DNA of 64,000 bases from Planktothrix tepida PCC 9214 (GTDB lineage: Bacteria > Cyanobacteriota > Cyanobacteriia > Cyanobacteriales > Microcoleaceae). Location of the stretch: assembly GCF_900009145.1 (NCBI RefSeq), contig NZ_LN889764.1:239994-303993 (forward strand), read 5' to 3'. The stretch's first letter is position 1. Every line of letters begins with the position of its first letter. Below the pieces are notes generated by a model. That model had not been told where the DNA came from and ran no database searches. It saw only the letters and a program-made list of their open reading frames with translations. The position numbers and the translations under genes are program-made. Positions 18,601-46,522 of the stretch are shown in pieces.

Positions 18601-21084
18601 CAATGGCGTTCCACTGGCAATTCCGCCTTGAGGAGATTGGATGACAACGGGATCTTGAAATGAAATATTCCCAGCAATAAAAATTGTACCCTTGCTTTGA
18701 GCTCCTCCAATAATAATTTCTGTAAACCCATTTTCTAAACTGTTTAAATCACTAGAAGATAAATTTAATGTGAGTTCTGCATTATTATTTTGACCTGCGA
18801 TTTCAATATCTTGAGCATTAGTTGCAGGTTGTAACAAAATTTGACCTTTGCCTTGAATTGAGTTTTGACCCCCTGTGAAATTAATTTCATCACTGGTAAT
18901 TTCGATATTACCAGTCGCATTTTCTAAACCATTAAATGTCCCGGTACGCAGTCCTTGAATTTCCGTCGCTAACTCTGCATTTAAGATAATATTTCCTCCG
19001 GTTTCCTGACCTCTAGTATCAATTAAATTCGTGGTCAAAGTCCGAGAAGTATTCACCAAAATATTCCCTCCTGAACCCTGACTAGAAGTAGCATCAATAC
19101 TATAGGAATCTCCCTCTAAAATAATATCTCCTTGTAAACTGCTGAGGGTAATATCTCCAGCTTGAACTTGACCAGAGGTATTAATATTATTGGTTTGAAT
19201 TCGGTTTAATGTACTTAAATTAACTGTCCCCCCGCTTCCATTTCTATTAGAAAAAGTGGAAATCTTATCGGTGACAATATCCCGATCACTTTTAATGGTT
19301 AAATTTCCACCATTTCCTAGGTTAGAAGTGGATAAATTTTCTGTCCGAATTCCCCCATTATTTGTTGCAGTTAGGTCTAAATTTCCCCCTTGAGTGATTA
19401 TATCTCCGGTGACTAAATTAACACCTGTAATCGCAATAGCAGCACCGGATGTGCGGAGGGTATCCCCCGAATTCATGGTAAATCCACCACTCCCTGATTG
19501 ATCTGCATCGGCGGTAAAAGTTAAGCTTCCTGTGGTGGCTGGAAACCTTAATTCATTATCGGCTAGATTCGCAATAGTAATATTATTTTTAGCTTCTATA
19601 ATCACATTTGCTGTGGTGGCGAAATCTTCTAGGGTTTGATCAGATAGGGTAAGATTAGCATTGCTTTGATCCTTATTCCCAATATTAATTTCTGCTGCAT
19701 TAATCACTAAATTACCTGGCTTTCCATCGCTTCCTTTGAGGTTGATATTTCCAGCTATATTAAGATTATTTTGACTAAAAATAGTAGCAGACCCTCCTAA
19801 TCCTTGACTCGTTTGGGAGTTGGAAGATCCTTGGGTACTAATATTTCCCAAAAATCGAGTTAAATCATGGGAACCAATGCTTACTCGTCCCCCATTTCCA
19901 TTGGTCAAGGCATCCGCTATAATTGTGGATTGATCATTAATGAAGGTACGCGAAGCCGTAGGAAAAAAACCATTTCCTTGATAGTCACTCCCAATTCTAA
20001 TGGTTCCCCCTCCATTGGCAGCAGAAGCATCAATTTCTGCGTTCGATAATTGAATATCATTGCCAATAATATTGATTTGGGGAAGCGTTGAGGATGATGA
20101 ATCTAAACTGGTATTTCTGGTATTCAAAAAACCTGAAATTAAAGCCATCCCTCCTTTGGGAGGTAAATTAGCACTCGAAGCAGTGAGTTTTACGGTTCCA
20201 TCCGGTAAAATATTCACAATAGAAGCTTGATTATTTTCTCCTGTTCCTGTTAATAATTCGGGTAATGAAAGAGGATTAATAACAGATTGTTCGGTCTCAG
20301 AAGTGGGGGTAACGGCTGCAATTTCTAAATTGAGTAAATAGCCCTCTTGACTAATTCTAACTAAGTTATTTCCTTCAATCGCTGCAATTGTGATTTGTCC
20401 TCCCGGTGCGTTTAGGGTTCCGGTATTAATCACATTTCCTCCAACTAACCTTAAGGTTTGTCCAGAGGAAACGGTGAGTTCTCCCGCATTAATAATATTA
20501 CCCGGATTGGAGGTGGAAAAAAGAAAGGTATTCGGTTCACCCGAAAGGGCGTTATAATTATTAGAATCTACAGCATTAAAAAACCCTGAATTAAATCCAA
20601 TTCCTGTAGCAGTTGTAGCAGTAAATGCAGCAGGAACATCTAAACGAGCTCCCGCTCCAAAAATGATTCCGGCTGGATTTAAAATGAAGAGATTAGAATT
20701 GCCTCCGGTGACTTGAATTAACCCTTCAATTAATGAAGGTTGTCCTCCTACTACACGGCTGAGAATATTTTGAATTGAAGGATTAGAAACAAAATTGGCT
20801 GTTTGACCTTGGGGAACGTTAAATTGAGTAAAACTATGAAATAAATTTCCCCCATCTCCTGAAGCTTGACCTCCGGTAATATCAACACGATTTCCCACCG
20901 AATTGGTTAGGGTATTGGTACTATTCGCTTCAGGAATAATAGATTGTGCTAAAACTCTATTTAGGGAAAAAATAACTTTCTGATTCCCCCTGAATATTTC
21001 CCAAACTCCATTCATCCCAATCGTCCATAATCCTGTCAACGGAAGGGAGATTAAAACTAACTTGAAAAAACGTCCAGGCTGCAT
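15613..21084 (-). CDS. Two-partner-secretion filamentous adhesin with C-terminal CHAT protease
   Basis: 1823 residues. The N-terminus has a signal peptide and the haemagglutination-activity (TPS) domain: NSVGNRVDITGGQASGDGGNLFHSF, then NPAGIIFGAGARLDVPAAF. About 1100 residues of beta-helix repeats follow (LSSLQGDIILEG-type, GSGG/NINT motifs). After a Ser/Thr/Pro-rich linker comes a C-terminal CHAT domain with His1662 (VHLATHGEF) and Cys1705 (VLSACTTAVG), both intact, ending SHPFYWAGFTLIGSPW. TPS adhesins are exported across the outer membrane by a TpsB partner, not seen here. CHAT domains are caspase-fold peptidases, so this would be an exported or surface protease. Confidence 0.92.
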   Translation of the reverse strand: MQPGRFFKLVLISLPLTGLWTIGMNGVWEIFRGNQKVIFSLNRVLAQSIIPEANSTNTLTNSVGNRVDITGGQASGDGGNLFHSFTQFNVPQGQTANFVSNPSIQNILSRVVGGQPSLIEGLIQVTGGNSNLFILNPAGIIFGAGARLDVPAAFTATTATGIGFNSGFFNAVDSNNYNALSGEPNTFLFSTSNPGNIINAGELTVSSGQTLRLVGGNVINTGTLNAPGGQITIAAIEGNNLVRISQEGYLLNLEIAAVTPTSETEQSVINPLSLPELLTGTGENNQASIVNILPDGTVKLTASSANLPPKGGMALISGFLNTRNTSLDSSSSTLPQINIIGNDIQLSNAEIDASAANGGGTIRIGSDYQGNGFFPTASRTFINDQSTIIADALTNGNGGRVSIGSHDLTRFLGNISTQGSSNSQTSQGLGGSATIFSQNNLNIAGNINLKGSDGKPGNLVINAAEINIGNKDQSNANLTLSDQTLEDFATTANVIIEAKNNITIANLADNELRFPATTGSLTFTADADQSGSGGFTMNSGDTLRTSGAAIAITGVNLVTGDIITQGGNLDLTATNNGGIRTENLSTSNLGNGGNLTIKSDRDIVTDKISTFSNRNGSGGTVNLSTLNRIQTNNINTSGQVQAGDITLSSLQGDIILEGDSYSIDATSSQGSGGNILVNTSRTLTTNLIDTRGQETGGNIILNAELATEIQGLRTGTFNGLENATGNIEITSDEINFTGGQNSIQGKGQILLQPATNAQDIEIAGQNNNAELTLNLSSSDLNSLENGFTEIIIGGAQSKGTIFIAGNISFQDPVVIQSPQGGIASGTPLREQFYTLTGLDDASLKLFASDNITLGTLNTNGQNILITSQLGTISTQKLSTGNSASATIQLTGTEINLLGGLNSIQGLGTLLLQPSRNTQAITLAGSEQSSSFDISSRDLETFADGFSSIKIGRTDSISTLTLAGNSTISDPLNLQAQSILGTGRLTGIDNASLTLSAGSDILIGDMSTQGGTIQLSSSQGNIRTGALQLVSGNPGIGDINLSAAGNIETGEIRVNSVEKITGNSNLSLNGQDINLISRNGTIRVNSEINNSSLQGDAVAIELFAPGAIITGNITAYRGINLTSSQGQIITGNLQTLQGIEKSQGISLTGYRGIKTDNINTTTPSGMSSNITLNSFTGSVQSGDLNTVGITRGGTITVVAGDRINTGKIDASSPEGSSGNIGLNASQDIDVISIRGEGKTQGGDIGIATHGLFRVTGTFNSRNQMNASISSVGGEEGGSIVIQQGGNYCSTSECSNIPFTVGNATLNGTTGAITDGNLVTILPQTNTNSNSTGTTGSTQAVVNQINSELQVNNQENPTPPITPQTDGSTTPVLTNSTSDSSLNSTSEPSSKPQEISENPIIPLNTPTIPTDQISSGSVISSLAQIDTFRGIEFSNYLGSNLKNPPVTDQSIRKTLNEIYKLTNSKSAIVYVSAQSDQLELRLILPEGQPIFKSIPVSRQTVLETARAFSNQIRSPENLEDTRYKENGKQLYDWLIEPLESQLEAEGINTLVFSMDTGLRTLPLAALYNGKQFLVERYSLGLIPSLSLTDTRYVNIKNSKVLAMGASIFPNSDQQPLPAVPLELNLIVHQNIWQGLSFLNDKFTIDNLTSQRNQHQFSIVHLATHGEFQTGGSDQSYIQFWDQKLRLTELRKLKLHQPPVELLVLSACTTAVGDEKAELGFAGLAVQAGVKSALASLWYVSDAGTLGLMNTFYEALSTSPIKAEALRQSQLAMLQGKVRLQQGYLIDETGTKTAKIPLPPEIASRGNVNLSHPFYWAGFTLIGSPW

Positions 21085-24793: not shown

Positions 24794-26209
24794 ATGAAAA
24801 AATATTTAGCCGGACTGATCTTACCCGTTCTTTATTTCTTATCCCCAACGGTAGCGAATGCTCAAGTTGAAACCACCCTACAACCTAACCAAATTACAAT
24901 TACAGGAAATCGCCTCGAAAAACAACCCCCACGTCAAATTTTTGTGCAAACAAATAGCCCAATTCAGGATTTACGGGTGCTGGTATTAGATTTGAATCGT
25001 CAAGATGGAACTACTGTTTTTCCAGCATCGGGGATTGTTTCTAATAAGCAAAATTGGCAGACAATTAAACCCAACCAAATGTTAATTCCACTTGAATTTA
25101 ACTTAAGTCAAGCCCCCAGTAGTGGCGAATATAATGGAACCATCCGTTTTAGTTATACCGGAGGAGAATTAACCCTACCGATTACCTTACAAGTTAAGGA
25201 TTTTTGGTTACTTCCTGTATTGGTATTATTTCTGGGAACTGGATTAGGAATTCTGGTTTCAGTTTATCGTGCTCAAGGAAGACCCCGTGATGAAATTTTA
25301 GTGCGGGTTGGACAATTACAAACTCAGATCCAGGAAGATATAGAATTTGGAAAAATAACGGCATTTAAACAATATATTGAAGGGTGTTTAATTGAGATTA
25401 AAATGGATTTGCAAACTGAAAAGTGGGAACAAGCGATCGCCACTTTAGAACAAGCTGAAAATGTTTGGAAACGATGGGTAAAAGGACGAAATGATTGGTT
25501 ACAACAATTCGATTATTGTCAACAACTCAAACATCAGTTAGAAGATAAAAATCCCAATGATTTAGAAGTAAAAGCCATATTGCGGGATTTAGAAGCAACA
25601 ATTAATGATGTCCCAGAACTTGAAACCCCCGAACAATTCCGAGAACGGTTAGAAAAAATTGCTCAACAGATGAATCAGTCCATTTTGGAGAATCAAAAGC
25701 AAGATTTAAAAGCGTTAATTGCCGAAATTCCCTTAGAAAAACGGACTACTATCCTTCCTGAATTTGAACAATTAGAAGCAAAAATTGCCACTGAATCTCT
25801 GGCTAATCCCAAACAATTTAAAGCGTTAACAACAGAGTTAAATGATTTAACTGTAAAAGCCCAAGACATCGGAAATGAATCTTCAGCAAGAGGAGTAATT
25901 TCTAAAAGTCTGTTTGGGTTTACTGGGGTTATGTCTCCGCCTCCAGTAACGAATCGTTCCATAACTTCAACGCCGGAAACAACCAAAGCGGGAGTGCGAT
26001 TAAAGTTATTTACTTGGACAAGTTATGCGATCGCCGTTATCTTTTTAGCCGGAACCGGATTCAGTCAATTATACATTGATAATCCCACCTTTGGCGCCAA
26101 TCCCTGGAAGGATTATTTTGCATTAATGGCTTGGGGTTTCGGTGCAGAAGCCACCCGTGATGCGATTACAAAAGTTGTTCAAAGTTGGAATTTACCGGGG
26201 TTGAAGTAA
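24794..26209 (+). CDS. Membrane-anchored protein with N-terminal beta domain and coiled coil
   Basis: 471 residues. A signal peptide ends near VANAQ; residues 25-138 look like an immunoglobulin-type beta domain (TNSPIQDLRVLVLDLNR, GEYNGTIRFSYTGGELTLPI); a membrane helix (WLLPVLVLFLGTGLGILVSVY) follows; then about 230 residues of charged coiled coil, a Ser/Thr-rich linker and a second hydrophobic segment near residue 410. The layout places the beta domain outside the cytoplasmic membrane and the coiled coil inside. It has no recognisable family and no catalytic motif. It converges on the papain-like protease gene. Confidence 0.7.
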   Translation: MKKYLAGLILPVLYFLSPTVANAQVETTLQPNQITITGNRLEKQPPRQIFVQTNSPIQDLRVLVLDLNRQDGTTVFPASGIVSNKQNWQTIKPNQMLIPLEFNLSQAPSSGEYNGTIRFSYTGGELTLPITLQVKDFWLLPVLVLFLGTGLGILVSVYRAQGRPRDEILVRVGQLQTQIQEDIEFGKITAFKQYIEGCLIEIKMDLQTEKWEQAIATLEQAENVWKRWVKGRNDWLQQFDYCQQLKHQLEDKNPNDLEVKAILRDLEATINDVPELETPEQFRERLEKIAQQMNQSILENQKQDLKALIAEIPLEKRTTILPEFEQLEAKIATESLANPKQFKALTTELNDLTVKAQDIGNESSARGVISKSLFGFTGVMSPPPVTNRSITSTPETTKAGVRLKLFTWTSYAIAVIFLAGTGFSQLYIDNPTFGANPWKDYFALMAWGFGAEATRDAITKVVQSWNLPGLK

Positions 26210-26268
26210 TTGAATCAAGCTGATAAAAAAACTAACAACCCAGTAATCTAAATATTATGAAGACAGAG

Positions 26269-27915
26269 CTAACGTGTTGGTTTTGGTGGTGGTGTTGGTG
26301 GTGGTGTTGTTGACGAACTGTTTCCTCTGTTCTCATCACCAGGGCTGCTGGTATCATTATGCTTCCAATCATCAAGCCCCAAACCAAAATTCTTAGTTTC
26401 AAACCACTCTGCTTTTATCAAAGACCACCAATCTGATGTTAATCCCTTAAGAATATAATCATAAGGTAACCAACCATAACCCTGTTCACCCCAATTAGTC
26501 CCCCAAGAATTTCTGATCAGCAGCGCACCGACTGAGGTTCCAATAATTTTAGTATCATCATAGCCAACTGCTACAACAGCATGACCCCCTTGCACATTAT
26601 CTTTTGAGTGAGGTATGGGAATATAACCTTTTTTGTAGTTAGCCTCTTCATAAATGGAACTGTAAATCGTTAACCCAAACATAGAAGGAAGACCAGCCAC
26701 TAAAGTCATTTTAATTTGAGCCAATAAATGGGTTGCAGGAAGACCCGGAGTGTCGAGCCTGAAATATTTAATTGTCTGATAAATCTGACCATAGGAGTAA
26801 CAAAAACCACTCGGTTCTTCATCAATTTTACTTGGTTCATAAGGCCAATATTCTTCCGGTGGAATTCCAAATAAGACCATTGCTTTCATTGTTTCCCGAA
26901 TGGATGCACCCACATCTCCTTGACGGTGCATGAGTTTTCGCGTTACTTTATACAAAAAAAGGACTGAAGCATTGGTATATTCGCCATAAATTTTGTTCTG
27001 AAAATATTCGACTAAAGCAATGGCGGAACAGGCTGTACATGAGCTTAAAGGTTCTTGATTTCTAACGGGAGAACACCAATAGCTTAAATCAACAAACTCA
27101 GGTAAACAGAAATAAACGGATGTGTAAGATTGTTCATACTTGTCGATACTGTTTTTAAATTCAGTAAGTAATGGAACTGATAATTGATGATCTTGATCTG
27201 ATAATTGATTAGGCTCTCCATCAGGACATTTTTTCAGAATTGTAGTTTGATTTTTCTTGGGAAAAAAATCAAACTGATTTTCATCTTGATTTGATCTATC
27301 TCTTGAATTTTTATTTTTTCCATTTGAGAAATCAGATAGAGCTTTGGTTTTAATGTCTTTTATTTTTGCTTTTAAATTATCCCACTTATTCTTCTCTCCT
27401 TCTGAAGTTTTGGCTTCTATCTTATCAATCATCCATTCAATTTTATCAAGAGTTATGAAAATTGAATAATTTAACCTTTTTCTTTCTATTGTAGACAGAG
27501 ATTTATAAATTAACATCACATCGATCTCACCCGCACGTTCTTTTCTTCCTCGCAGAAATTCAAGAAAAAATTTTGTATTCATATCATAATTATCTAAAAA
27601 TTGGGGTTGTTGAGGGTGATTTTCTGGATCTTCATCTAAAAGTGGTTCAGCCAAAAAACTATTTATTAACTCTATAACGTGGGGTATCGCTTGTTCATAA
27701 TTTAATTGACCATGAATGCCAATTTCCGAAATTTGTTTGATTACCAACTGGATCAATGGATCAATAATAGCAATAATATCGTTAGGAAGCGGATCATTAC
27801 TCGATTGATTTTTTATTTCTAAAGTTTGAGCTTCTTGATGATTTTCAAGTTTGAGTCGAATTTTATCTTGAAAATCTTTTTTGATGTTTTTAGAAATAGG
27901 GTTTTGAATACTCAA
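26269..27915 (-). CDS. Papain-like (C1) cysteine protease
   Basis: 548 residues. The first 270 are charged and helical without a known domain. The C1 catalytic domain starts at LPEFVDLSYWCSPVRNQ, with oxyanion Gln287, nucleophile Cys296 (SSCTACSAIA), His445 (GGHAVVAVGYDD) and Asn469 (IRNSWGTNWGEQGYGWLPYDY), a complete catalytic set. The C-terminus is low complexity (TTPPPTPPPK). There is no signal peptide, so it probably acts in the cytosol unless exported otherwise. It is the last gene of a same-strand block with a peptidoglycan-binding-like protein, a TIR-STAND-WD40 protein and a caspase-TIR protein. Confidence 0.85.
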   Translation of the reverse strand: MSIQNPISKNIKKDFQDKIRLKLENHQEAQTLEIKNQSSNDPLPNDIIAIIDPLIQLVIKQISEIGIHGQLNYEQAIPHVIELINSFLAEPLLDEDPENHPQQPQFLDNYDMNTKFFLEFLRGRKERAGEIDVMLIYKSLSTIERKRLNYSIFITLDKIEWMIDKIEAKTSEGEKNKWDNLKAKIKDIKTKALSDFSNGKNKNSRDRSNQDENQFDFFPKKNQTTILKKCPDGEPNQLSDQDHQLSVPLLTEFKNSIDKYEQSYTSVYFCLPEFVDLSYWCSPVRNQEPLSSCTACSAIALVEYFQNKIYGEYTNASVLFLYKVTRKLMHRQGDVGASIRETMKAMVLFGIPPEEYWPYEPSKIDEEPSGFCYSYGQIYQTIKYFRLDTPGLPATHLLAQIKMTLVAGLPSMFGLTIYSSIYEEANYKKGYIPIPHSKDNVQGGHAVVAVGYDDTKIIGTSVGALLIRNSWGTNWGEQGYGWLPYDYILKGLTSDWWSLIKAEWFETKNFGLGLDDWKHNDTSSPGDENRGNSSSTTPPPTPPPKPTR

Positions 27916-28005
27916 TAAAATAGGATTTTTTTTCTCTTTATTTTGGATAAAATCTTGATTCTTATATTCAAGAAAAGTAAATAATTGCTCTCGAAAACAC
28001 TGTTT

Positions 28006-29145
28006 TTAATCTTCAGCCTTCTCAATAATCTGTCTTAAAAATTCTTGAATAGTTAAAAGTTGTGATTGTTCCTCAGATTTACTTACAGTGATTTCATCGA
28101 TGACTTTTTCAGTAACCTCATCGAAGATTCCGTTGATTTTAATCTCTTCTTTTCTAAAATCATTCCTGAGTCTTTTTTGTATATAAATGATTGAAAAGGC
28201 TTTAAGATTCTTGATATCGTTTACTTGTGATATATTTATTACCTTATTATTTTTTTGGCATAACTTTCGCCAAGTAGAAGGCCCAACTATACCATCAGCT
28301 TGTAAACCATTAATCCCTTGAAAAAATTCAACAATTAAATCTGTCTTAAAGCCAAAAAAGGAGCTACATTTTTCATCTTCTGAAAAGAATATCCCATATC
28401 CTAGTTCTTCTAATTTATTTTTAATAAGATTTACTATCTTCCCATAATCTCCTATCTTGATTTCTGGAAAATCGTTAGTATCTTTTTCTTCTTGACAATT
28501 TCTACAAATTTCTTCATAATTTTCAATTTCTTTTTTATTCTTAATTCTATTATGAATTGTGTTTAAAACTTTATAAATAGTGACCTTAGAATCGTATTGA
28601 TAAAATTCTTCTTCTTGGTTGGCTTTAGTCTCATCATCTACATCTAAAATGCTATCTTTGTTAGGAATCTCCCATATAGCTTTGAATTTAATTATGAGTT
28701 TATGTGTAACTTCTCCAAAATAACCATTTTCTAATTTTAACTTTTCTAAATCCTTTTTAATCTCTGTACTTGACTCTGGGTCTAAATATGAACAACACTT
28801 GTCCAAAATAGAAAACAATTTGCCTTGAATTTCTTTAACTTTTGCATTCTTAATTCCTCTGTATAAAAAATATTTATTTTCTTTTTGTACTGTTAAAAAA
28901 CAAATTTCATCCCGGTTTTTTTGAATTATACTTTCCAGCCTTTCATCTAAAGATGTTTTTCCCTTTTGATCAGTGTTGGAGACTATTTTTTTAATTAATT
29001 CGGCTAATTCAAGAATTTGTGATGCTGTATATTCTGAATTCTGAGACTGATCTTTGATGATATTTTTGTTCAGATCACTTAGTTTCAGATCTCTCTGGTC
29101 AGGATAGTCGGGTAACCAGCCTAATGAATTCTGGTTTAAGGGCAT
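28006..29145 (-). CDS. Peptidoglycan-binding-like protein with protease propeptide motif
   Basis: 379 residues, A+T-rich and lysine-rich. The N-terminus LGWLPDYPDQRDL is the motif that usually opens bacterial C1 protease precursors. At least one PG_binding_1 repeat is clear (FFQGINGLQADGIVGPSTWRKL, about 275-300) and two degenerate ones are likely (NGYFGEVTHKLIIKFKAIW; KINGIFDEVTEKVID). No signal peptide or catalytic residue is seen. It lies 90 bp upstream of the C1 protease gene. The two together have the domain order of a single precursor, so this may be the detached pro-half, or a regulator, of the protease. Confidence 0.65.
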   Translation of the reverse strand: MPLNQNSLGWLPDYPDQRDLKLSDLNKNIIKDQSQNSEYTASQILELAELIKKIVSNTDQKGKTSLDERLESIIQKNRDEICFLTVQKENKYFLYRGIKNAKVKEIQGKLFSILDKCCSYLDPESSTEIKKDLEKLKLENGYFGEVTHKLIIKFKAIWEIPNKDSILDVDDETKANQEEEFYQYDSKVTIYKVLNTIHNRIKNKKEIENYEEICRNCQEEKDTNDFPEIKIGDYGKIVNLIKNKLEELGYGIFFSEDEKCSSFFGFKTDLIVEFFQGINGLQADGIVGPSTWRKLCQKNNKVINISQVNDIKNLKAFSIIYIQKRLRNDFRKEEIKINGIFDEVTEKVIDEITVSKSEEQSQLLTIQEFLRQIIEKAED

Positions 29146-29275
29146 AATTCAAATCCTTGTTTTCTCTAAAAATTTAAGGTGCTATTTTTAATAGTATGTT
29201 GAAATAACACCATTTATAGGAAATTAATTTTTTCTTTAGGATCTTCTAAGCCAGAGTAGTGAAAAATACATTTTA

Positions 29276-32200
29276 TTAGCCTTTAGGAGCAGGACAAAGT
29301 TGTTTATTTTTGTTTGGATCATTAAAAGTAAAATAATTTTTAAGCCAACTGCATCCTCCTTCTAAAAGCTTATCCAAATCGGTAACTTGCTCCACATCCC
29401 AAAGAATCACTGTTTTGTCTGAACTAGCGGAAGCTAGGATACGACCACTCTTACTAAAACTAACATCATTGACTTCATCCTGATGGCCCTTGAGAGTAAC
29501 AATAGGAGTCCTCCTATCCCAATCCCAAAGTCTGACGGTCTTATCATCACTAGCAGAAGCAATAATTTTATTTTTAGGATTAGGATTAAAAACCACTCCC
29601 CAAATAGGAGATTCATGTCCTTCAAATTTTTTAATAAGTTTACCCTTTATATCCCACAGATCAACCATTTTATTTTGACCGCCTATAGCGATAAGTTGAT
29701 CATTAGGGCTAAAAGCGACACTATAAACTGAGCTTTCATTCTCGATGATTAACGGATTTTTATCGCTAATTTTTAAGGGCTGATGATTAGTTTTTAGAGT
29801 CCAAATTCTGACGGTTTTATCTTCACTGGCTGTTGCCATTAAAAGTGCTTTATGACTAAATCTTACATTATAAACCCGCCCATTATGTTCATTAAGTTCC
29901 TGTATTTCTTTTCCATTATCCTGATTCCAAAGTTTGATTTGTCCATCATAACTTGTTGTAGCAATCCATTGGTTATCAAAACTAAAATCAATACTTCTAA
30001 CTTCTTCCGAATGACCTCGTAGAGTATGTTCTATTTTACCAGCTTTAAAATTCCAAAGTAATGCTTGTTTATCTTTACTGGCTGTTCCCAATATATTCCC
30101 ATCAGCAGTAAAATTAATATCCTTAACTATACCCTTATGAGTATCTAAAGAATTTTGCAATTCCCCATCTTGGTTCCACAACTTGACTTCTACATCATCT
30201 CCATTGGAAGTTGCTAGTAGTTGTTCATCTACAGGACTAAAGCTAACATTTGCGACAAGATGATTAAACTTTTTAATTTGTTTGATCTTAGAATTGCGAA
30301 ACTGCCAAATCTTAACCATGTTATCATCACTAACTGAGGCTAAAATTTGATTTTCTGATCTTGGCTTGAAATCAATAGCATTAATTCGATTTTGATGCGC
30401 TATAACACTGCTGATTTCCTGACCTTGGAGAGTCCAAGTTTTAATGATATTATCTTCACTTGCTGAAGCCAAAATTTTACCGTCAGGACTAAATGAAACA
30501 CTTAAAACTCCACTCTTGTGACCCTTTAAAGCATCAAATTTTGGAGTCCCATCTAAATTCCAGAGCCTTACCGTTTTGTCAAGACTAGCACTCGCTAAGG
30601 TTTGACCATCAGGGCTAAATGAAACACTATATACTTCATGGTTATGTTTTAATTTGGTTTTGACAGACCATTGGTTAATATTTTTTCTTGTCCATAAAAT
30701 GATAGTTTGATCAGCACTTCCAGACGCGAGAGTTTGACCATCAGGGCTAAAACTAAGGCTACGAACTATTCCTTGATGCCCTGTTAAAGTAGTAATTGGT
30801 TTACCGTCTTTTGTCCACAGTTTAATTTTTCCATTTTCCAAACCTGCTGCAATTAAGTCTTCCTTGCCACTAAAACTAATACTATGGCAGGGTGAATCAT
30901 GTCTCAATAATAGATCTTGAGGAATTTTTTTCCAATCTTCCCCTTGTTTTTCCCAAAGTCTGACAGTTCCATCTAAACTAGCAGTTGCCATCATTTTTCC
31001 ATCGGAACTAAAGCTAATATTTCTGATAGCATCCTGATGTCCTGATAATTCTTGTAAAAGACTTCCATCTTGATTCCAAAGTTTAACGATCTTGTCATAA
31101 CCTCCCGTTGCCAAGATTTCACCATCAGGGCTAAAGCTAACGGTTTGAATTGCATCCGTATGTCCCTGCCAACGATTTTGTTCTTTAACCCAATTAATTC
31201 CTTGAGCTAATACAGTTAAAACATCAGCCTTCAGTTGAGGGTTATTCCGATTAAAAATCGATTTCTTGAAAAGTTCTCCCGCTTCTAATGCTGCGACTAA
31301 TGAATCAAAGGTATCAGGATTTTCCGTAAACCGAGCATTAGCTGTTTCAATTTTAGCAATAATTTGACCTTTATCTGCTTCTTGCCATTGATGTTTTGCA
31401 ATTCCAGCAACTCCGATAGCAACAGTAGCAACTCCTGTAATTACCGTCAAGGCAACTCTAGTAATCCATAAATTTTTTTGGCTTAGTTTTAATTCCCGTT
31501 CTTGAGCTTCTTTTTCTCTTTGTTTTTCGGCTTCTATTGCCGTTTTACTTGATTCAACTAACGCTACTAATTGATCATCACTCCCTAATTCGATTGCATC
31601 AGAACTCTCTAACCAATGTTGGGCTTCAGCGAGTTCAAACTCATCCAATAATCCTCCTTTATCTTTCCCTAATCTCCCCCATTCTTCCACTTTTGCGATC
31701 AGTCGGCGACGGGTTTGTTCAGCTTCTCGACGTTCAATAATCCAATTTTGTAACTGGGGCCAACTACTAATTAAAATTTCATGGGCAATATCAACTTTTC
31801 GAGTTTTATCCTCTTTTCCACTTAAGGTTAATAATCGACGATCGGCTAAATAACGTAAGGTTTCTTCAAAGATTTGATCATTATCTCCCCTGGCTTTTAA
31901 AGCTTCTACAGATTCTTGTCGTCGGGTATCTGCCCGCCCTTCTCCAAACTGAATTAAACGTAAAAATACCCGACGGGCGATGATTTGTTGTTCATCAGTT
32001 AAACGAGCGATCGCAGCATCCCCCTGTCGCGCGATCGCCACTTGAATTCCAGTCAATTGATTATTAGTATTAGAGACGGTATTATGATAAGATAAGACTA
32101 AGGCTTCATAGGCTCTTAACGGTAAATATCGCCGTTCTATTTTTTGCCATAATAAGACTAATGTTTCTTGTAATAACGGTAAAACTCCAGGTTCGCTCGC

Positions 32201-33262
32201 GGCTGTTATAATTAATCGTTCTAATAATGCCGATTCGATAAAAACACCCGCCTTTTCCGCAGGTTTAAGAATGGCTTCTTGCAGTCCCGTTTGATCTAAG
32301 GGTAAAACTTCATAGCGATGGGCTTTAATTTCTCGCCAGAAAGTAGGAGATTCCATCAGTTGAGGATAAAAATCTGCTCGAACGGTTATAACAACATAAA
32401 CATTAGGCTGTTTATAGAGATTTAATAGGATTTCTTCAAAGGAATTTGCTTCTTGAGGAGATTGGGTAAAAACTTCTTCAAATTGATCAATGACTAATAG
32501 GAATTTTTGGGAAGGATGGAATTTTGTTGTGATAGCTTCATCAGAAGTTGGATCACAGCCTAATGTTGCGGTTAATGTGGTTATGGGTGTTGTACCTGGA
32601 CGCATGGAATAGATTTGCCAGGGTTCTTTTCCTAATAATTGGGTTTTTTGCAGTTGCGGAATTAACCCAGCGAAAACAAGGGAAGATTTACCGCTTCCTG
32701 ATGCTCCAATGACGGCTAAAAAGGGAAATAATCGTAACTGTTGAATTATATCATTAACTTCTTGTTGTCGTCCAAAAAAGCGATCGCTATCTTCTGGTTT
32801 AAAGGGAACCATCCCCGGATAGGGACAATCAGGAATAGTGGCTAAAGTCGGAACTGGTTTTTTGAAATCTTCACAAATTCGTTGAATGACTTCCTGTTGT
32901 TTTGTCGCATCCGTCGCATCCAGATACCCTAACATTTCTAGGCGCATGGGTAATTCTTGAACAGGATGCAAAATAATCACAACAGTCGGCCAAATATCCG
33001 TATGGCGTCCGTAGATTTGGGAGAGTAAATTAACAAATTCTGCAAAATTATCGTTTAAATAGGCGGGGGAAATCACTAATAAGGTTCGTTCACTATTTTT
33101 AACCGCACTTTCAAATTCAATTAATCGCGGTACACCTAACCGAAACATCGCCTCGGAATGACAGGTTAACCCGGCTTCTTCTAAAGCATTTAATAAATAA
33201 CCTTCTACCCAGGCGCCATCCTCGTCTGCGTAGGAAACAAATACAGAATATTGTTTTGACAT
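29276..33262 (-). CDS. TIR - STAND NTPase - WD40 protein
   Basis: 1328 residues from an ATG behind GAGGG. Residues 1-135 are a TIR domain (YSVFVSYADEDGAWVEGYL; VISPAYLNDNFAEFV). Then the nSTAND1 NTPase starts at CPYPGMVPFKPEDSDRFFGR, with Walker A GASGSGKS (186-193) and Walker B FLLVIDQFEEVF. A winged-helix/helical arm and a hydrophobic segment (VALTVITGVATVAIGVAGI) follow. The C-terminal half holds 14 WD40 repeats, enough for two seven-bladed propellers. This is the layout of NLR-like signal-transducing NTPases: the propellers sense, the NTPase oligomerises and TIR signals. The position of the usual TIR glutamate is not obviously filled. Confidence 0.92.
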   Translation of the reverse strand: MSKQYSVFVSYADEDGAWVEGYLLNALEEAGLTCHSEAMFRLGVPRLIEFESAVKNSERTLLVISPAYLNDNFAEFVNLLSQIYGRHTDIWPTVVIILHPVQELPMRLEMLGYLDATDATKQQEVIQRICEDFKKPVPTLATIPDCPYPGMVPFKPEDSDRFFGRQQEVNDIIQQLRLFPFLAVIGASGSGKSSLVFAGLIPQLQKTQLLGKEPWQIYSMRPGTTPITTLTATLGCDPTSDEAITTKFHPSQKFLLVIDQFEEVFTQSPQEANSFEEILLNLYKQPNVYVVITVRADFYPQLMESPTFWREIKAHRYEVLPLDQTGLQEAILKPAEKAGVFIESALLERLIITAASEPGVLPLLQETLVLLWQKIERRYLPLRAYEALVLSYHNTVSNTNNQLTGIQVAIARQGDAAIARLTDEQQIIARRVFLRLIQFGEGRADTRRQESVEALKARGDNDQIFEETLRYLADRRLLTLSGKEDKTRKVDIAHEILISSWPQLQNWIIERREAEQTRRRLIAKVEEWGRLGKDKGGLLDEFELAEAQHWLESSDAIELGSDDQLVALVESSKTAIEAEKQREKEAQERELKLSQKNLWITRVALTVITGVATVAIGVAGIAKHQWQEADKGQIIAKIETANARFTENPDTFDSLVAALEAGELFKKSIFNRNNPQLKADVLTVLAQGINWVKEQNRWQGHTDAIQTVSFSPDGEILATGGYDKIVKLWNQDGSLLQELSGHQDAIRNISFSSDGKMMATASLDGTVRLWEKQGEDWKKIPQDLLLRHDSPCHSISFSGKEDLIAAGLENGKIKLWTKDGKPITTLTGHQGIVRSLSFSPDGQTLASGSADQTIILWTRKNINQWSVKTKLKHNHEVYSVSFSPDGQTLASASLDKTVRLWNLDGTPKFDALKGHKSGVLSVSFSPDGKILASASEDNIIKTWTLQGQEISSVIAHQNRINAIDFKPRSENQILASVSDDNMVKIWQFRNSKIKQIKKFNHLVANVSFSPVDEQLLATSNGDDVEVKLWNQDGELQNSLDTHKGIVKDINFTADGNILGTASKDKQALLWNFKAGKIEHTLRGHSEEVRSIDFSFDNQWIATTSYDGQIKLWNQDNGKEIQELNEHNGRVYNVRFSHKALLMATASEDKTVRIWTLKTNHQPLKISDKNPLIIENESSVYSVAFSPNDQLIAIGGQNKMVDLWDIKGKLIKKFEGHESPIWGVVFNPNPKNKIIASASDDKTVRLWDWDRRTPIVTLKGHQDEVNDVSFSKSGRILASASSDKTVILWDVEQVTDLDKLLEGGCSWLKNYFTFNDPNKNKQLCPAPKG

Positions 33263-33407
33263 AGCAATCCCTCTGGTTTGTTTTGGGGTGAAAACGGTAT
33301 TCAATGCGATCAATTCACCTGCTTTCTATTACAGTGCTATAAAAGGAAATTCCTGTACAATTGTTTGCGATCGCTTTTGAGATAGCCTTCCCTGATATTT
33401 TCCTTCT

Positions 33408-33435
33408 GTAGAGACGTGCCATGGCACGTCTCTAC
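33408..33435 (+). repeat. 28-bp perfect palindrome (CATG-centred), copy 1
   Basis: Half-site GTAGAGACGTGCCA followed by its exact reverse complement. Same length and same outer bases as the palindromes at 50916 and 56046, with a different middle. Confidence 0.7.
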
Positions 33436-33471
33436 GTTATCTGGTCTTCCTTAACCCGTTTTAAAGGGTTT

Positions 33472-33498
33472 GTAGGGGCGAGGGAACCTCGCCCTTAC
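33472..33498 (+). repeat. Imperfect GC-rich palindrome
   Basis: GTAGGGGCGAGG, a GAA loop, then CCTCGCCCTTAC. It shares the GTAG...TAC ends with the 28-bp family. The whole gap from 33263 to 33661 holds only these repeats and a GCGATCGC site; no gene was seen. Confidence 0.55.
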
Positions 33499-33661
33499 GC
33501 CTGAAATTTATTTCAAGGCTTTTAGAATTAAGTTGACACCGATGGTTCTGTGTTAACCTTTCCAATCCTTACCCCCAAAATTATTAACTAACCCTGCGAG
33601 TTAGGATCGATTAATCACAAGTCTATGACAACACTATAACAGAATTATTGATTGATTTCAA

Positions 33662-34936
33662 TCATTCGTAAAGTCCCGATTCGGTGCGATGATACAGAGG
33701 TTGTTTTAACTGTTCAATTAAATTTTGTAAATTTCGTTCACCGCGTCGAGAATCGTCAAGCTTCCGTGGTTTTTCTAATTGTAGGCGTTCGGGCAGTTTA
33801 GACAGATCAACGTCCTCTTTTTGTGTATAAATCAAACGAGCTTTCTTTTCTTTAATTCCCAAGTTTTGAACTAAAACATTTTCAAATTCCGCCATACTAT
33901 TATCTAAGTATAAATTCGATAAAATGACAAGGGTTCGTTTAGAAAATTTAACACCCCGTTCTATATTAATCACCCGTGCGACCCCTAATAAATCCACATC
34001 TCCTGAAACCGCAACTTTTAGGTTTTCTGCTTCTAATTTTGGCACTAAGAAATCCCAAACCCAAGTTGAATCTGGTTCTTCATCCACATAACTAATATAA
34101 ACATCATAGCGGAATTCTTCTTGAGGTTGAGGAGAAACCGGACTCACCCCTTTTTGCCCGCCTAAATAGAGGGTTAGGGGAAAATTTTCCTCAATATCAG
34201 ATTTAAAAATCGGGTGTTGATTCGGTTGTTCGGCGGTAACTTTCGGTTGTAAATATTCAAAAATATCAAAGATTCTAATTAATCCATCATTGCTAGTAAT
34301 TCCTCCTTTTAACCCGGCGATTAAATGTTGAGTAAAAACACTATTATTTGCGCCCCGATTCACATAGGATTGTTCTGTATTCCGAGAGGAGGCAAATATA
34401 ACCCGACCTTTTCCTTGCACTAATTGATCATAATAATTATCCGGTAATCCTCCTTTGATTTCGGGTATGGTTGGATCTTTGGGTTGACCAATTCCTCCAG
34501 AGTGACAACAATCAAAAATTACAACTAATTTTCGGGCGGGAATTGCTTTTAATGCGTCTGTAAATTGGGTTCCTGAAATAGCGGTTTCTACTAAGGATGC
34601 ACCGGAGGTATAAACCGTATCAACGAGTAATAAATATTCTCCCGCAGTCGGGCCAAATTCAACTTGTGCTCCATGTCCTGAAAAATAAATTAATACCGTT
34701 GAATCTGGGTTTGTTTTAGTCGATAAATCAGTTAACGCTTGAGTTAAAGCTGATTTTGTGGCTTTTTCATCTAATAATAATTCCACATTTTCAATTAAAT
34801 AACCACAGAATGAAGGTTCTGTTAATAAACTATAAATATCCTTAGCATCGTTGAGAACCGTTGACGGCAAAGGTTTGATTTTTTGATAATTAGAAATTCC
34901 GATAATTAGAGCGTAACAGTTGTTTAGGGTTGTCAT
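33662..34936 (-). CDS. Caspase (C14) - TIR fusion protein
   Basis: 424 residues. The N-terminal caspase p20 domain has His88 (IYFSGHGAQ) and Cys144 (VIFDCCHSGG), the catalytic dyad, plus the strand CYALIIGISNYQ. Residues about 277-400 form a TIR domain (YDVYISYVDEEPDSTWVWDFL; VILSNLYLDNSMAEFENVL), which keeps a glutamate where TIR NADases have theirs. Prokaryotic caspases of this type cut after basic residues, and activation is often coupled to Ca2+ or oligomerisation. The gene is upstream of, and on the same strand as, the TIR-STAND-WD40 gene, so TIR-TIR contact between the two proteins is a natural inference. Confidence 0.9.
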   Translation of the reverse strand: MTTLNNCYALIIGISNYQKIKPLPSTVLNDAKDIYSLLTEPSFCGYLIENVELLLDEKATKSALTQALTDLSTKTNPDSTVLIYFSGHGAQVEFGPTAGEYLLLVDTVYTSGASLVETAISGTQFTDALKAIPARKLVVIFDCCHSGGIGQPKDPTIPEIKGGLPDNYYDQLVQGKGRVIFASSRNTEQSYVNRGANNSVFTQHLIAGLKGGITSNDGLIRIFDIFEYLQPKVTAEQPNQHPIFKSDIEENFPLTLYLGGQKGVSPVSPQPQEEFRYDVYISYVDEEPDSTWVWDFLVPKLEAENLKVAVSGDVDLLGVARVINIERGVKFSKRTLVILSNLYLDNSMAEFENVLVQNLGIKEKKARLIYTQKEDVDLSKLPERLQLEKPRKLDDSRRGERNLQNLIEQLKQPLYHRTESGLYE

Positions 34937-38421: not shown

Positions 38422-38862
38422 ATGGATCATCAATACGTTCTCAGTTTTGATGGTAAGGATGATTATGTCTCCATACCTACGATGAATGTTGATTACTCTC
38501 AAGGTTTAACCGTAGTGGGTACACCTTATCGTGAGGCGACAACAGGGGCGGTAGATAGCAAAAATCCCCTTCAACGTTGGATTATTACACCCGATGGCGT
38601 GATTAAAAATGAAGCGGGTTTTGTACTCGATTATCAAGACTATGGAATCACTCCCTATTATGTCGTGATGGCGAATCGCATTCAGGAAAATCACGGTTCA
38701 CCATCTCAACAATGGCGAGCCGAAAATGGGGTAATTAAGAATAAACACAATGCAGATTTAGTGTTAGATATTGCTGGCTGTAATCGGGAACCCAATACGA
38801 CGATTTTAGCCTCTCCTTGGCTGGGTGGATTAAATCAAGAATGGGAATTTGTGTTGGCTTAA
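38422..38862 (+). CDS. Ricin-type lectin protein with internally deleted LamG domain
   Basis: 146 residues. The first 32 match the start of the longer neighbour (YVLSFDGKDD, SQGLTV), then the sequence jumps to VGTPYREATTGAVDSKNP and the beta-trefoil lectin domain (QRWIITPDGVIKNEAGFVLD, QQWRAENGVIKN, LDIAGCNREPNTTI). Compared with the next gene, about 225 residues of LamG-like domain are missing in frame. It may still fold as a single lectin domain that binds glycan. No signal peptide is seen. Confidence 0.75.
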   Translation: MDHQYVLSFDGKDDYVSIPTMNVDYSQGLTVVGTPYREATTGAVDSKNPLQRWIITPDGVIKNEAGFVLDYQDYGITPYYVVMANRIQENHGSPSQQWRAENGVIKNKHNADLVLDIAGCNREPNTTILASPWLGGLNQEWEFVLA

Positions 38863-38938: not shown

Positions 38939-40024
38939 ATGGATAATCAATACGTTCTCAGTTTTGACGGTAAGGATGATGATGTGGGCGTACCCCTCAA
39001 GATGTATATAAATTTCTCTCAAGGTTTCACCGTAGAAGCCTGGGTGTTATATCACAGTTTCCCGAATCGCTCAATCATCATCTCTTTTGTCAACACCAGT
39101 GATGGCTATCAGTTTTTTCAGTTGATGAATTATCAAACAACAAGAAAGTTAGCATTGCATTTCCAATGCTTGCCATCGCACAGTCGCCTTGCCGTGGACG
39201 GCTACGTGATTTCAGATTATGAAATACTAGAGACAGGGATTTGGATGCACATAGCAGCCACGGTTAATAGCTCAAACAATGTCACCTTCTATAAAAATGG
39301 TGAGGTTGTGAAAACCGGGTCTTTACCTCTTCCACCGGTATGGTCTGGGCAATGGGAGCACTTGTCTATTAGTCATGGGAGGTCATCAAACGATAGTCTC
39401 TTTCAGGGTTGCATAACTGAGGTTCGACTCTGGAATGTTGTGCGTTCTGTGGATGAGATTCGCGCCGATAAAAATCGTCGGTTAAATGGAGATGAAAAGG
39501 GATTAGTCAGTTATTGGCCCTTAAATGAAATTAGTGGAAATAGAGTAGTGAATAAAGCCAATAATAGTCATTCTGGCGAAGTTCATGGAGGTGCTACAAT
39601 TGTTGAGGCGAACCCCCCACTTGAGTTCAGACCGAAAACTTATTTAATTAAGAGCAAACTCAATGGTTTAGCTTTAGTCGGTACACCCAATAAGCCAGCA
39701 ACAACAGGAGCGGTAGATAGCCAAAATCCCATTCAACGTTGGATTATTACTGCCGATGGCGTGATTAAAAATGAAGCGGGTTTTGTACTCGATTATCAAG
39801 ACTATGGAAGCACTCTCTATTATGTGGTGATGGCTAATCGCATACAAGGAACTCAGGGTTCACCATCTCAACAATGGCAAATCGAAAATGGAGTGATTAA
39901 GAATAAACACAAAGCTGATTTAGTCGTAGATATTGCTGGTAGTAATCCCGCTCCCAATACGACAATTTTAGCGGCTCATGGCATGGGTGGATTAAATCAA
40001 CAATGGGAAATGGTGTTGGTTTAA
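38939..40024 (+). CDS. LamG-like / ricin B-type lectin protein
   Basis: 361 residues. Residues 1-205 form a LamG/concanavalin-like domain (VLSFDGKDDDVGVP, FTVEAWVLY, WMHIAATVNSSNNVTFYKNGEVV, FQGCITEVRLWNVVRSVDEI, SYWPLNE). Residues about 225-361 form a beta-trefoil lectin with repeats QRWIITADG, QQWQIENG and NQQWEMVLV, the QxW signature of ricin B folds. Both are sugar-binding modules. No signal peptide or secretion signal is evident. It lies next to a glycosyltransferase, so a glycan-related role is plausible. Confidence 0.85.
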   Translation: MDNQYVLSFDGKDDDVGVPLKMYINFSQGFTVEAWVLYHSFPNRSIIISFVNTSDGYQFFQLMNYQTTRKLALHFQCLPSHSRLAVDGYVISDYEILETGIWMHIAATVNSSNNVTFYKNGEVVKTGSLPLPPVWSGQWEHLSISHGRSSNDSLFQGCITEVRLWNVVRSVDEIRADKNRRLNGDEKGLVSYWPLNEISGNRVVNKANNSHSGEVHGGATIVEANPPLEFRPKTYLIKSKLNGLALVGTPNKPATTGAVDSQNPIQRWIITADGVIKNEAGFVLDYQDYGSTLYYVVMANRIQGTQGSPSQQWQIENGVIKNKHKADLVVDIAGSNPAPNTTILAAHGMGGLNQQWEMVLV

Positions 40025-41150: not shown

Positions 41151-42386
41151 ATGACTCGTAATACTCGTCGTCATTTCCTCAAATTTGCCAGTTCAGCACT
41201 AGCAACTCTGGGAATGAATCAATTCCTATTCCAACAAAAAGCCGAACAAGCTGGCAAAGTCCTTGCCCAAAGTACACCCCGCAAATTAGCTTTATTAGTA
41301 GGGATTAATCAATATCCTTCCTCACCCTTAGAAGGATGTATCAACGATATTGATTTACAACGCTATTTGTTAATTCATCGATTCGGGTTTAATCCCAAAG
41401 ATATTTATATTCTACCCCAAACAGAAGCCACCCGGACAGGAATTTTAACCGCTTTTGAAGAACATTTAATTAAACAAGCCAAACCCGGAGATATTGTGGT
41501 TTATCACTATTCCGGGCATGGTTCGCTCATTTTTGATCCCGCTCCAATTATAACCCGATTAGGAAATAGACAAGGATTAAATGGAACCTTTGTTCCTATT
41601 AATAGTAAATTACCTGCCGGATATCCTGAAGTGGGGGGAGTTGTCCAAGATATTATGGGGCATACCTTATTTTTATTAATGTCAGCCCTGAAAACCGAAA
41701 ATGTGACGGTGGTTTTAGATAGTTGTTTTTCCGGTGGAGCCACGCGAGAAGTCCGAGTACGTTCCCGCGAAGGAGGTGAAAATATTTTAGTTTCTTCTGA
41801 TGAAAAAAACTATCAGCAACAGTGGTTATCTCGATTAAATTTATCTCCTGAACAATTTGTTAAAGGCTATCAAACTGGAGTTGCTAAAGGGGTAGTATTA
41901 GCGGCAACGGCCCCGAATCAACTGGCGCGGGAAGAAAATCTTAATGGTTTTCCTTGTGGTTTATTCAGTTATTTACTAACTTATTATCTCTGGCAGGAAG
42001 ACAACAATATTAAACAGATATTTCAAAAGATTCTCCCAGAAATTCCTGAAACATATAACCAAGTTCCCCGTTATGAAGTTAAAGTGGGGAGTGGGTATCA
42101 ACAACAACTGCCCTATTTTATTAATTCTCCCAAATCTCCCGCCCAAGCAGTTGTAACGGCAGTCAGTGGTGACACAGCCCAATTATGGTTAGGGGGAATT
42201 GACTTAAGAAAGGTGACAACGGGAACAATATTTGCTGCTATTAATGGTACAGGACAAGTGAAAATGATTTCCCGTGAGGGGTTAGTAGGACAGGTAAAGA
42301 TTGAGAAACCATTGACACTCCCACCCCTGCGCTACGCTAAAGGGGTGGGATTCTCGTATCTAGTCCAGTCAAGCAGAGACAGTTGA
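41151..42386 (+). pseudogene. Metacaspase/orthocaspase, 3' end replaced by IS200/IS605 end
   Basis: 411 residues. The Tat-like signal (TRRHFLKFASSALATLGM) is followed by a caspase p20 domain with His123 (VVYHYSGHGS) and Cys192 (VVLDSCFSGGAT), both intact. The coding frame continues normally to about VKIEKPLTLP, then runs into the transposon end (PPLRYAKGVGFSYLVQSSRDS). The C-terminal part seen in longer cyanobacterial metacaspases is therefore absent. The protease domain is complete, so a truncated but active product is possible. Such enzymes cleave after Arg or Lys. Confidence 0.8.
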
Positions 42387-43558: not shown

Positions 43559-43593
43559 GATAACATAAGGTTGATGAATCGTGTGTATCGACA

Positions 43594-43992: not shown

Positions 43993-44062
43993 CCTTCACT
44001 CCGCCTAAAGGCGGGTATTCTACATCCCACGCTTGAAAGACGTGGGCTTTGAATACGGTTAT

Positions 44063-44239
44063 TGTAATAAACGCACAGCTTTCATGGCGATGTATGTTTT
44101 TCTGGGGTTAAATGGCTATTTATTAGAAGTTCCAGAAATCGAGGTTGTGCAAATCATGGAAGGGTTGGCAACTGACCCAGAAACTCAAGACTCTTTAGCC
44201 CAATGGTTAAGGAAAAATTCTGTATTAGAATTGATGTAA
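44063..44239 (+). pseudogene. Doc/Fic toxin fragment cut by the IS element
   Basis: The frame reads CNKRTAFMAMYVFLGLNGYL and ends ETQDSLAQWLRKNSVLELM. It matches the second half of death-on-curing (Fic-fold) toxins from the HxFxDGNKR motif on; the Gly is now Cys at the transposon junction, and the catalytic His and everything N-terminal are lost. No antitoxin gene remains. Not expected to be active. Confidence 0.75.
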
Positions 44240-44266
44240 ATGCAAATCAGGGGAAGGGGTAAAAAA

Positions 44267-46513: not shown

Positions 46514-46522
46514 GTGAATTAT

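What the first reader, a model, noticed from the sequence alone, without database searches (positions are those of the whole stretch)
26269..34936. Candidate conflict/cell-death module: caspase-TIR, TIR-STAND-WD40, PG-binding-like and papain-like protease genes
Four same-strand genes combine a caspase fused to TIR, a TIR-NTPase with 14 WD40 repeats (NLR-like), a protein with a C1-protease propeptide motif, and an intact papain-like protease. TIR is present in both signalling proteins, so TIR-TIR contact could relay activation from the WD40 sensor to the caspase and then to the papain-like enzyme. STAND, TIR, caspase and CHAT domains are known in predicted conflict systems of multicellular bacteria; the four-gene combination with a split C1 protease is what I have not seen described.
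Basis: partly seen in the sequence, partly recalled or inferred. Interest (0 to 1): 0.8.

Follow-up and report, generated by a model that had tools for sequence, protein, structure and literature searches.

The report
Paired-TIR protease receptor island in Planktothrix
A mobile gene island in the filamentous cyanobacterium Planktothrix pairs a probable membrane sensor with a caspase through matching TIR domains and adds a second protease; its sensor and protease part has been exchanged between species, which looks like a self/non-self or anti-phage death switch.

Summary
The locus is real, but "four genes with a split C1 protease" is wrong: the 379-aa and 548-aa ORFs are one gene with one in-frame stop; four same-genus relatives have it whole. 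The island is caspase-TIR, TIR-nSTAND1-TM-WD40, PGB-papain and a convergent membrane protein, p471, in 5 of 10 Planktothrix genomes.

The widespread core is the TIR pair. Of 44 distinct effector-TIR genes outside the window, 28 have a TIR-nSTAND gene within 8 kb and 9 another N-terminal TIR gene. The effector is caspase, CHAT or trypsin. STAND-side TIRs lack the TIR glutamate (0 of 35); caspase-side TIRs mostly keep it (34 of 40). 44 of 48 TIR-nSTAND proteins have a predicted membrane helix after the NTPase, suggesting a periplasmic WD40 sensor.

The WD40-protease region is hypervariable between species, yet has only 2 differences in 4,954 bp from one relative that is 77-88% identical in long matches elsewhere: a recently exchanged block.

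Likely mechanism: a transmembrane STAND receptor recruits the caspase by TIR-TIR contact; the caspase may activate the papain zymogen. Mechanism inferred from sequence. New variant of a known kind.

The parts
33662..34936 (-). caspase-TIR gene, 424 aa: caspase domain about 34142-34936, TIR about 33665-34126 (glutamate E352)
   Evidence: Pfam; E352 invariant in 16 of 16 aligned caspase-TIR proteins, catalytic His column kept in 15 of 16; SGHG and DCCHS present
29276..33313 (-). TIR-nSTAND1-TM-WD40 gene; likely start ATG at 33262 (1328 aa)
   Evidence: Pfam; A1 alignment of the TIR; start as in three of four relatives
32819..33262 (-). platform TIR domain, Val in the glutamate column
31658..32824 (-). 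nSTAND1 NTPase domain
   Evidence: Pfam PF20703, residues 164-552; Walker A GASGSGKS
31400..31456 (-). predicted membrane helix, residues 603-621
   Evidence: hydropathy 2.22; helix at this place in 44 of 48 TIR-nSTAND proteins outside the window
29279..30964 (-). WD40 repeat region (approximate limits)
   Evidence: Pfam WD40 417 bits; blade motifs
26269..29145 (-).
   Evidence: one frame; whole in four relatives
28261..28437 (-). PG_binding_1 domain
   Evidence: Pfam 47.7 bits, residues 237-295 of the 379-aa ORF
26470..27078 (-). Peptidase_C1 catalytic domain
   Evidence: Pfam 52.7 bits; Cys, His and Asn in invariant columns of five aligned relatives
24794..26209 (+). p471, 471-aa membrane protein convergent with the papain gene; candidate extra component
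   Evidence: at 79-100% identity in exactly the 5 island genomes of 10 in the genus, plus a 42% paralogue in G047; hydropathy peaks at 5-23, 139-157 and 405-423, the first and last weak
26213..31166 (.). exchanged block (WD40 plus protease): 2 mismatches to G045
   Evidence: background

Best explanation
The island encodes a membrane-anchored NLR-like receptor with a proteolytic output. (1) The WD40 propellers of the TIR-nSTAND1 protein lie outside the cytoplasmic membrane and sense a ligand (phage, envelope damage or a non-kin cell). (2) ATP-dependent oligomerisation of nSTAND1 clusters its degenerate cytoplasmic TIR. (3) That TIR platform recruits the TIR of the caspase by homotypic contact and activates the caspase by proximity. 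(4) In Planktothrix the caspase then releases a leaderless papain-like zymogen (PGB/linker part plus C1 domain), and proteolysis stops or kills the cell. p471 may be an anchor or a target. Shown by sequence: gene order, TIR pairing and asymmetry, effector swapping, predicted helix, hypervariability and block exchange. Inferred: every functional step 1-4.
For: TIR pairing: 28 of 44 effector-TIR genes with TIR-nSTAND within 8 kb, 9 more with another TIR gene, median gap to the STAND gene 164 bp. Effector swapping on one kind of TIR: 16 caspase, 3 CHAT, 2 trypsin among 21 in the window and the cyanobacterial loci, CHAT and trypsin rows among caspase rows in the tree. Platform TIR without glutamate 0 of 35, caspase TIR with it 34 of 40. 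Membrane helix in 44 of 48, K+R richer before it in 30 of 34 distinct. Same three-gene order plus p471 in 5 of 10 Planktothrix genomes. C1 catalytic domain conserved at 81-86% while the rest of the protease is 40-47%. Papain relatives beside STAND or WD40 genes in 5 of 11 places. Precedents from papers seen in passages: caspase-activated pro-nuclease (PMC12799240), two required peptidases in LypABC (PMC13236601).
Against: 7 of 44 effector-TIR genes had no TIR partner at 80 bits (5 with at least 4 kb on both sides; 2 of the 7, L238 and L245, have weaker TIR-nSTAND neighbours). G002 has a TIR-nSTAND gene and no effector TIR found. No papain beside TIR pairs outside Planktothrix. The papain protein has no evident signal peptide, so a periplasmic WD40 could not touch it directly. 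The topology rests on hydropathy and charge only. The protease is interrupted in this genome. G052 and G048 have similar WD40 (72%) but unlike protease N-halves (45%), so the two do not always travel together. The structure model of the protease failed (pLDDT 37).
Confidence: 0.5

Rival explanations
1. Enzymatic-TIR model: the STAND platform assembles the caspase-side TIR, which keeps the glutamate, into an active NADase; NAD+ loss or an ADP-ribose signal is the output and may switch on the fused caspase in cis.
For: Glutamate kept in 34 of 40 caspase TIRs and 5 of 6 other effector TIRs against 0 of 35 platform TIRs; in L233, L234 and L235 the polarity is reversed, the partner TIR having E. 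E352 invariant in 16 of 16 aligned.
Against: The Trp of WxxxE is kept in only 4 of 40 caspase TIRs. Animal TLR TIRs align an E at the same place, so the column is no proof of activity. The pair of L093 has E in neither TIR (Q and T).
Confidence: 0.2
2. Allorecognition model: the exchanged WD40-protease block is a strain-specificity determinant that kills or arrests cells in contact with a filament carrying another allele, like fungal NLR-WD40 incompatibility genes (comparison recalled).
For: W-G051: caspase, prfB, nSTAND and p471 dS 0.07-0.20 but WD40 1.06 and protease N-half 0.74; dN/dS about 0.3-0.75 in N-half and linker. Predicted outward sensor.
Against: An arms race with phages gives the same pattern; only five genomes; no population or contact data. 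Not exclusive of the best explanation, of which it is one choice of ligand.
Confidence: 0.2
3. Chance neighbours: caspase-TIR and TIR-STAND form the system, while papain and p471 are passengers of the same insertion.
For: No papain at TIR pairs outside Planktothrix among the loci examined; only 16 of 28 examined p471 places adjoin a caspase or STAND gene; the protease is interrupted here and, at another place, in G425.
Against: Papain kept next to the STAND gene in 5 of 5 island genomes with a conserved C1 domain, and beside TIR-less STAND/WD40 genes in 5 of 11 other places; WD40 and protease moved together in the G045 exchange.
Confidence: 0.3

Closest known systems
EAD-coupled STAND and ternary conflict systems (Kaur et al. 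2020 PMC7159879, 2021 PMC8195603; passages seen)
   Same: Adjacent genes share a small domain thought to join a peptidase effector to an NTPase; repeats as sensor; multicellular bacteria
   Different: The shared domain here is a TIR, not an EAD or Death-like domain; platform and effector copies differ in the glutamate; predicted membrane helix between NTPase and sensor
Type IV Thoeris, TIR signal to caspase-like effector (Rousset et al. 2025; title seen only in a reference list; content recalled)
   Same: TIR linked to a caspase-like protease
   Different: As recalled, a separate TIR enzyme makes a diffusible signal; here the TIR is fused to the caspase and pairs with a STAND TIR lacking the glutamate
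CARD-NLR systems including LypABC (PMC13236601; passages)
   Same: NLR-like NTPase plus two peptidases
   Different: No CARD match in the window proteins, TIR instead; trypsin-like proteases there, caspase and papain here
Canu caspase-nuclease (PMC12799240; passages)
   Same: Caspase acting on a downstream proenzyme
   Different: The possible proenzyme here is a papain-like protease; no nuclease match in the four ORFs
Cyanobacterial orthocaspases with TIR or NACHT/WD40 (PMC3501461, PMC8283722, PMC2853523; passages)
   Same: Single proteins with these domains are in print, including a caspase with TIR
   Different: The passages describe single proteins, not a paired TIR gene
Animal apoptosome and Toll receptors (general knowledge; apoptosome also in PMC7159879 passages)
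   Same: WD40 NTPase platform activating caspase; TIR-TIR adaptor contact
   Different: TIR replaces CARD; order of parts differs; TLR similarity of these TIRs is shared by ordinary bacterial TIRs

Membership tests
EAD-coupled STAND conflict systems | Same small domain on the NTPase and on an adjacent peptidase effector | tested here: met
   TIR on both; 28 of 44 effector-TIR genes with TIR-nSTAND within 8 kb
EAD-coupled STAND conflict systems | The shared domain is one of the described EADs or Death-like domains | tested here: not met
   No EAD family among Pfam matches of the caspase-TIR and protease ORFs; for the STAND ORF only 25 of 64 families were shown, and the shared domain aligns as TIR
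EAD-coupled STAND conflict systems | Superstructure-forming repeats on the NTPase | tested here: met
   WD40, 417 bits
EAD-coupled STAND conflict systems | Enrichment in multicellular bacteria | tested here: inconclusive
   Many carriers are filamentous by general knowledge; no statistical test made
Type IV Thoeris | Separate TIR enzyme making a signal for a caspase-like effector | not testable with these tools
   No Thoeris model hit in PADLOC 2023, a release older than the description of type IV; chemistry cannot be tested here
CARD-NLR / LypABC | CARD-like domain and trypsin-like peptidases | tested here: not met
   No CARD or trypsin among Pfam matches shown for the window ORFs
EACC1-caspase system | NCBIfam caspase_w_EACC1 above cut-off | tested here: not met
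   116.7 bits against a cut-off of 140
Canu | Caspase with a gated nuclease | tested here: not met
   No nuclease family in the window ORFs at E 0.01
Caspase (C14) peptidase | His-Cys dyad | tested here: met
   SGHG and DCCHS; Pfam 84 bits
Papain (C1) peptidase | Cys, His, Asn catalytic segments | tested here: met
   reading frame interrupted upstream of the domain in this genome
TIR NADase | WxxxE motif with catalytic Glu | tested here: inconclusive
   Window caspase TIR has E but Met at the W place; STAND TIR has neither

The most novel reading that the evidence does not exclude
A bacterial counterpart of Toll-receptor signalling built on an NLR chassis: an outward WD40 sensor, one membrane helix, a STAND NTPase and a pseudo-TIR form the receptor, and a TIR-caspase (or TIR-CHAT, TIR-trypsin) is the cytosolic effector. 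In Planktothrix the sensor and a papain zymogen form one hypervariable block exchanged between species, acting as a non-self recognition specificity.
Probability: 0.25. Interest if true: 0.85.

Novelty: new variant of a known kind. Interest (0 to 1): 0.6.

Why it matters
It would show TIR domains used in bacteria as an asymmetric adaptor pair (degenerate platform TIR, conserved effector TIR) that plugs different proteases into one receptor, as Death-fold domains do in animals. It predicts a transmembrane STAND receptor, which is easy to test, and offers a natural series of sensor alleles exchanged between Planktothrix species from which the ligand could be sought.

Tried and rejected
Split C1 protease as a two-subunit design: rejected (one frame, one stop, whole gene in four relatives).

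Special kinship of these TIRs to animal Toll-like receptors: the profile hits TLR structures best (E about 1e-20), but two other bacterial TIRs, L138 and L215, also hit TLRs best, so it is not special.

Convergent genes after the STAND gene as a general component: L124 and L128 match a porin family, L137 is OprB, L135 has no Pfam match but is similar to L124 and L128; ordinary neighbours.

p471 as an obligatory component: 16 of 28 places examined have a caspase or STAND gene of the island type next to it or one small ORF away. The 28 are the 5 island genomes, G047, G501, G515 and 20 fetched; one search listed 34 matches, so 6 were not examined. Kept as a candidate.

Structure of the papain fusion: mean pLDDT 37 with 5 rows; not used, no fold search run. 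The caspase-TIR structure job was never accepted. The first genome-contig scan with the papain ORF found no relative. No Rfam match at gathering threshold and no tRNA in the window.

Full report
Setting. The window lies in a 6.78-Mb genome. One same-genus genome, G052, has the island on a contig of 710,824 bases, the length of the record titled Planktothrix sp. PCC 11201 in the named search, so I call the genus Planktothrix.

Observation. The caspase-TIR, nSTAND1-WD40, PG_binding_1 and Peptidase_C1 ORFs are at the stated places. The STAND protein's TIR is shown by alignment with the other TIRs and by TIR structures in a PDB search. The last two ORFs are one gene: they share a frame and only one TAA (28006-28008) separates them. 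In G045, G048, G051 and G052 the gene is one ORF of 958, 913, 1015 and 959 aa with both domains. Whole copies exist; the window's copy is interrupted, or misread in assembly. In the more distant G425 a homologue is interrupted by a stop at another place.

Island. Of 10 genomes of the genus (own included), 5 carry the set in the same order: caspase-TIR, TIR-nSTAND1-WD40, PGB-papain, convergent p471, next to prfB. p471 at 79-100% identity occurs in exactly these 5; G047 has a 42% paralogue beside another caspase. prfB is in 10 of 10. In G049 prfB is followed directly by a 605-aa gene and then a 148-aa gene; genes of the same lengths and order lie beyond p471 in G048 (matched by order and length, not aligned). 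The block thus seems to come and go as one insertion.

The TIR pair. A profile of both TIRs matched 23 of 388 genomes of the order, 21 of them two or more times (the 10 best candidates per genome were scored). G002 has only the STAND-side TIR, and G597 one weak match. A named scan of GTDB contigs kept the best 80 of 109 relatives of the caspase-TIR protein. Those in which the TIR was confirmed include cyanobacteria, Chloroflexota, Thiothrix, Halobeggiatoa, Frankia, Humibacillus and a KSB1 bacterium. Of 44 distinct effector-TIR genes outside the window with a TIR score of 80 bits or more, 28 have a TIR-nSTAND gene within 8 kb, 9 only another N-terminal TIR gene, and 7 neither. Two of those 7, L238 and L245, have a TIR-nSTAND neighbour at 70-74 bits, and two others have short flanks. 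The median gap between effector and STAND genes is 164 bp, duplicate records included.

Effector swapping. In the window and the cyanobacterial loci, 21 effector-TIR genes comprise 16 caspase, 3 CHAT (L079, L124, L130) and 2 trypsin (L092, L093). In a 97-row tree the 35 STAND TIRs fall together with two other N-terminal TIR rows, opposite the effector TIRs; CHAT and trypsin rows lie among caspase rows. For L079 the branch is well supported (100/98), others weakly; the root is a midpoint and the deepest split has support 93/68. L276, an EAD7-TIR-TPR protein, falls outside.

Asymmetry. In the deduplicated alignment the glutamate column holds E in 0 of 35 STAND TIRs, 34 of 40 caspase TIRs (4 D, 2 A), 5 of 6 other effector TIRs and 13 of 16 other N-terminal TIRs. 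A naive Fisher test on STAND against caspase rows gives p = 1.5e-15, but related rows are not independent. In L233, L234 and L235 the partner TIR has E and the caspase TIR does not; in L093 neither has. The Trp four places earlier is kept in 4 of 40 caspase TIRs. Animal Toll-like receptor TIRs align an E at the same place, so this column alone does not show NADase activity.

Membrane topology. By hydropathy, 44 of 48 TIR-nSTAND proteins (duplicate records included, window not) have a helix after the NTPase; the four without (L134, L211, one of two in L220, L243) have 365-643 aa. The window protein has it too. Among 34 distinct helices, the window's included, K+R is higher before than after in 30, equal in 3 and lower in 1. 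TIR and NTPase would be cytoplasmic and the WD40 periplasmic. Downstream of STANDs without WD40 lie related 460-478-aa proteins (L092, L093, L129, L133) and a 440-aa CAP-domain protein (L132); L092, L093 and L132 have an N-terminal hydrophobic stretch, L129 and L133 fall below my threshold.

Hypervariable, exchanged block. Against G051, which is 94-97% identical in the best matches of 1 kb or more in window 1-20000 and 44001-64000, the window has dS 0.07 in the caspase, 0.13 in prfB, 0.20 in nSTAND and 0.18 in p471, but 1.06 in WD40, 0.74 in the protease N-half, 0.55 in the linker and 0.46 in C1. The effector TIR is also raised (0.45). Against G045 the pattern inverts: caspase 0.34, prfB 0.47, nSTAND 0.36, p471 0.42, but 0.000 in WD40, N-half, linker and C1, with 2 mismatches over 26213-31166 (4,954 bp). 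The best G045 matches of 1 kb or more in the two searched 20-kb pieces are 77-88% identical; pieces below 1 kb reach 96%. So sensor and protease were moved between species recently as a block. Against one inseparable unit: G052 and G048 have WD40 at 72% but protease N-half at 45%. The C1 domain itself is 81-86% identical between unlike alleles.

Papain elsewhere. In 386 genomes of the phylum, 41 have a C1 match at E <= 1e-5. Of the 11 strongest non-Planktothrix places, all fetched, 5 adjoin a WD40, nSTAND-WD40 or caspase-nSTAND-WD40 gene (G425, G388, G379, G252, G338) and 6 do not (G291, G156, G065, G230, G121, G093); blastp found no TIR of this kind beside any. In G065 and G230 a lanthipeptide synthetase lies next to it.

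Mechanism. The best reading is a membrane STAND receptor whose platform TIR recruits caspase-TIR, with a papain zymogen as an added step in Planktothrix. Shown by sequence: order, pairing, swapping, asymmetry, predicted helix, exchanged block. Inferred: ligand sensing, oligomerisation, TIR contact, caspase activation, papain cleavage, cell death. Precedents: canu caspase-proenzyme systems (PMC12799240, passages) and LypABC with two required peptidases (PMC13236601, passages).

Novelty. Caspases with TIR and caspases with NACHT/WD40 are in print as single proteins (PMC3501461; PMC8283722; PMC2853523; passages). Kaur et al. describe homotypic EAD coupling, and in the passages I read TIR appears as an enzyme or effector (PMC7159879; PMC8195603). 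DGR-diversified STAND sensors with TIR or peptidase domains are described in PMC10907252 (passages). I found no description of the paired TIR arrangement in the paper searches; these cover open-licence papers only, I opened eight of the papers and read passages, and no supplements.

Noticed in passing
window 41151-42386 (+): A second caspase gene in the window (Peptidase_C14, 63.9 bits) with a near-cut-off Tat-signal match, next to an IS605-type transposase gene at 42332-43627.
   Followed up: no
window 15613-21084 (-): 1823-aa secreted-type protein with TPS secretion domain at the N-terminus and a full CHAT protease domain at the C-terminus.
   Followed up: no
window 24794-26209 (+) and homologues: The p471 membrane-protein family recurs beside caspase or nSTAND genes in 16 of 28 places examined; it may be a general caspase partner.
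   Followed up: partly
L088:5631-10468, L089:5199-9992, L090:8627-12672: Caspase-nSTAND-WD40 protein (in L090 in two ORFs) convergent with a papain gene, nearly touching or overlapping, in three genomes: a TIR-less version of the same pairing.
   Followed up: partly
L085:9177-13464 and L086:9175-13478: A papain-like gene next to a lanthipeptide synthetase (DUF4135 + LANC_like); possibly a leader-processing protease.
   Followed up: no
L081:8385-10970: The papain fusion homologue of G425 is also interrupted by one in-frame stop, at a different place from the window's; interruption may be recurrent.
   Followed up: no
L125:2985-4346; L211:6924-8438; L210:321-2108; L215:1838-3508: Other N-terminal TIR proteins beside caspase-TIR genes: TIR-FGE-sulfatase, TIR-AAA_35, TIR-BNR/Vps10-like; alternative sensors or platforms.
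   Followed up: partly
window 56097-57275 (-): Transaldolase with a C-terminal EF-hand motif.
   Followed up: no
window 38422-38862 and 38939-40024 (+): Tandem related genes: a Laminin_G_3 + ricin-B lectin protein and a shorter copy without the Laminin_G_3 match.
   Followed up: no
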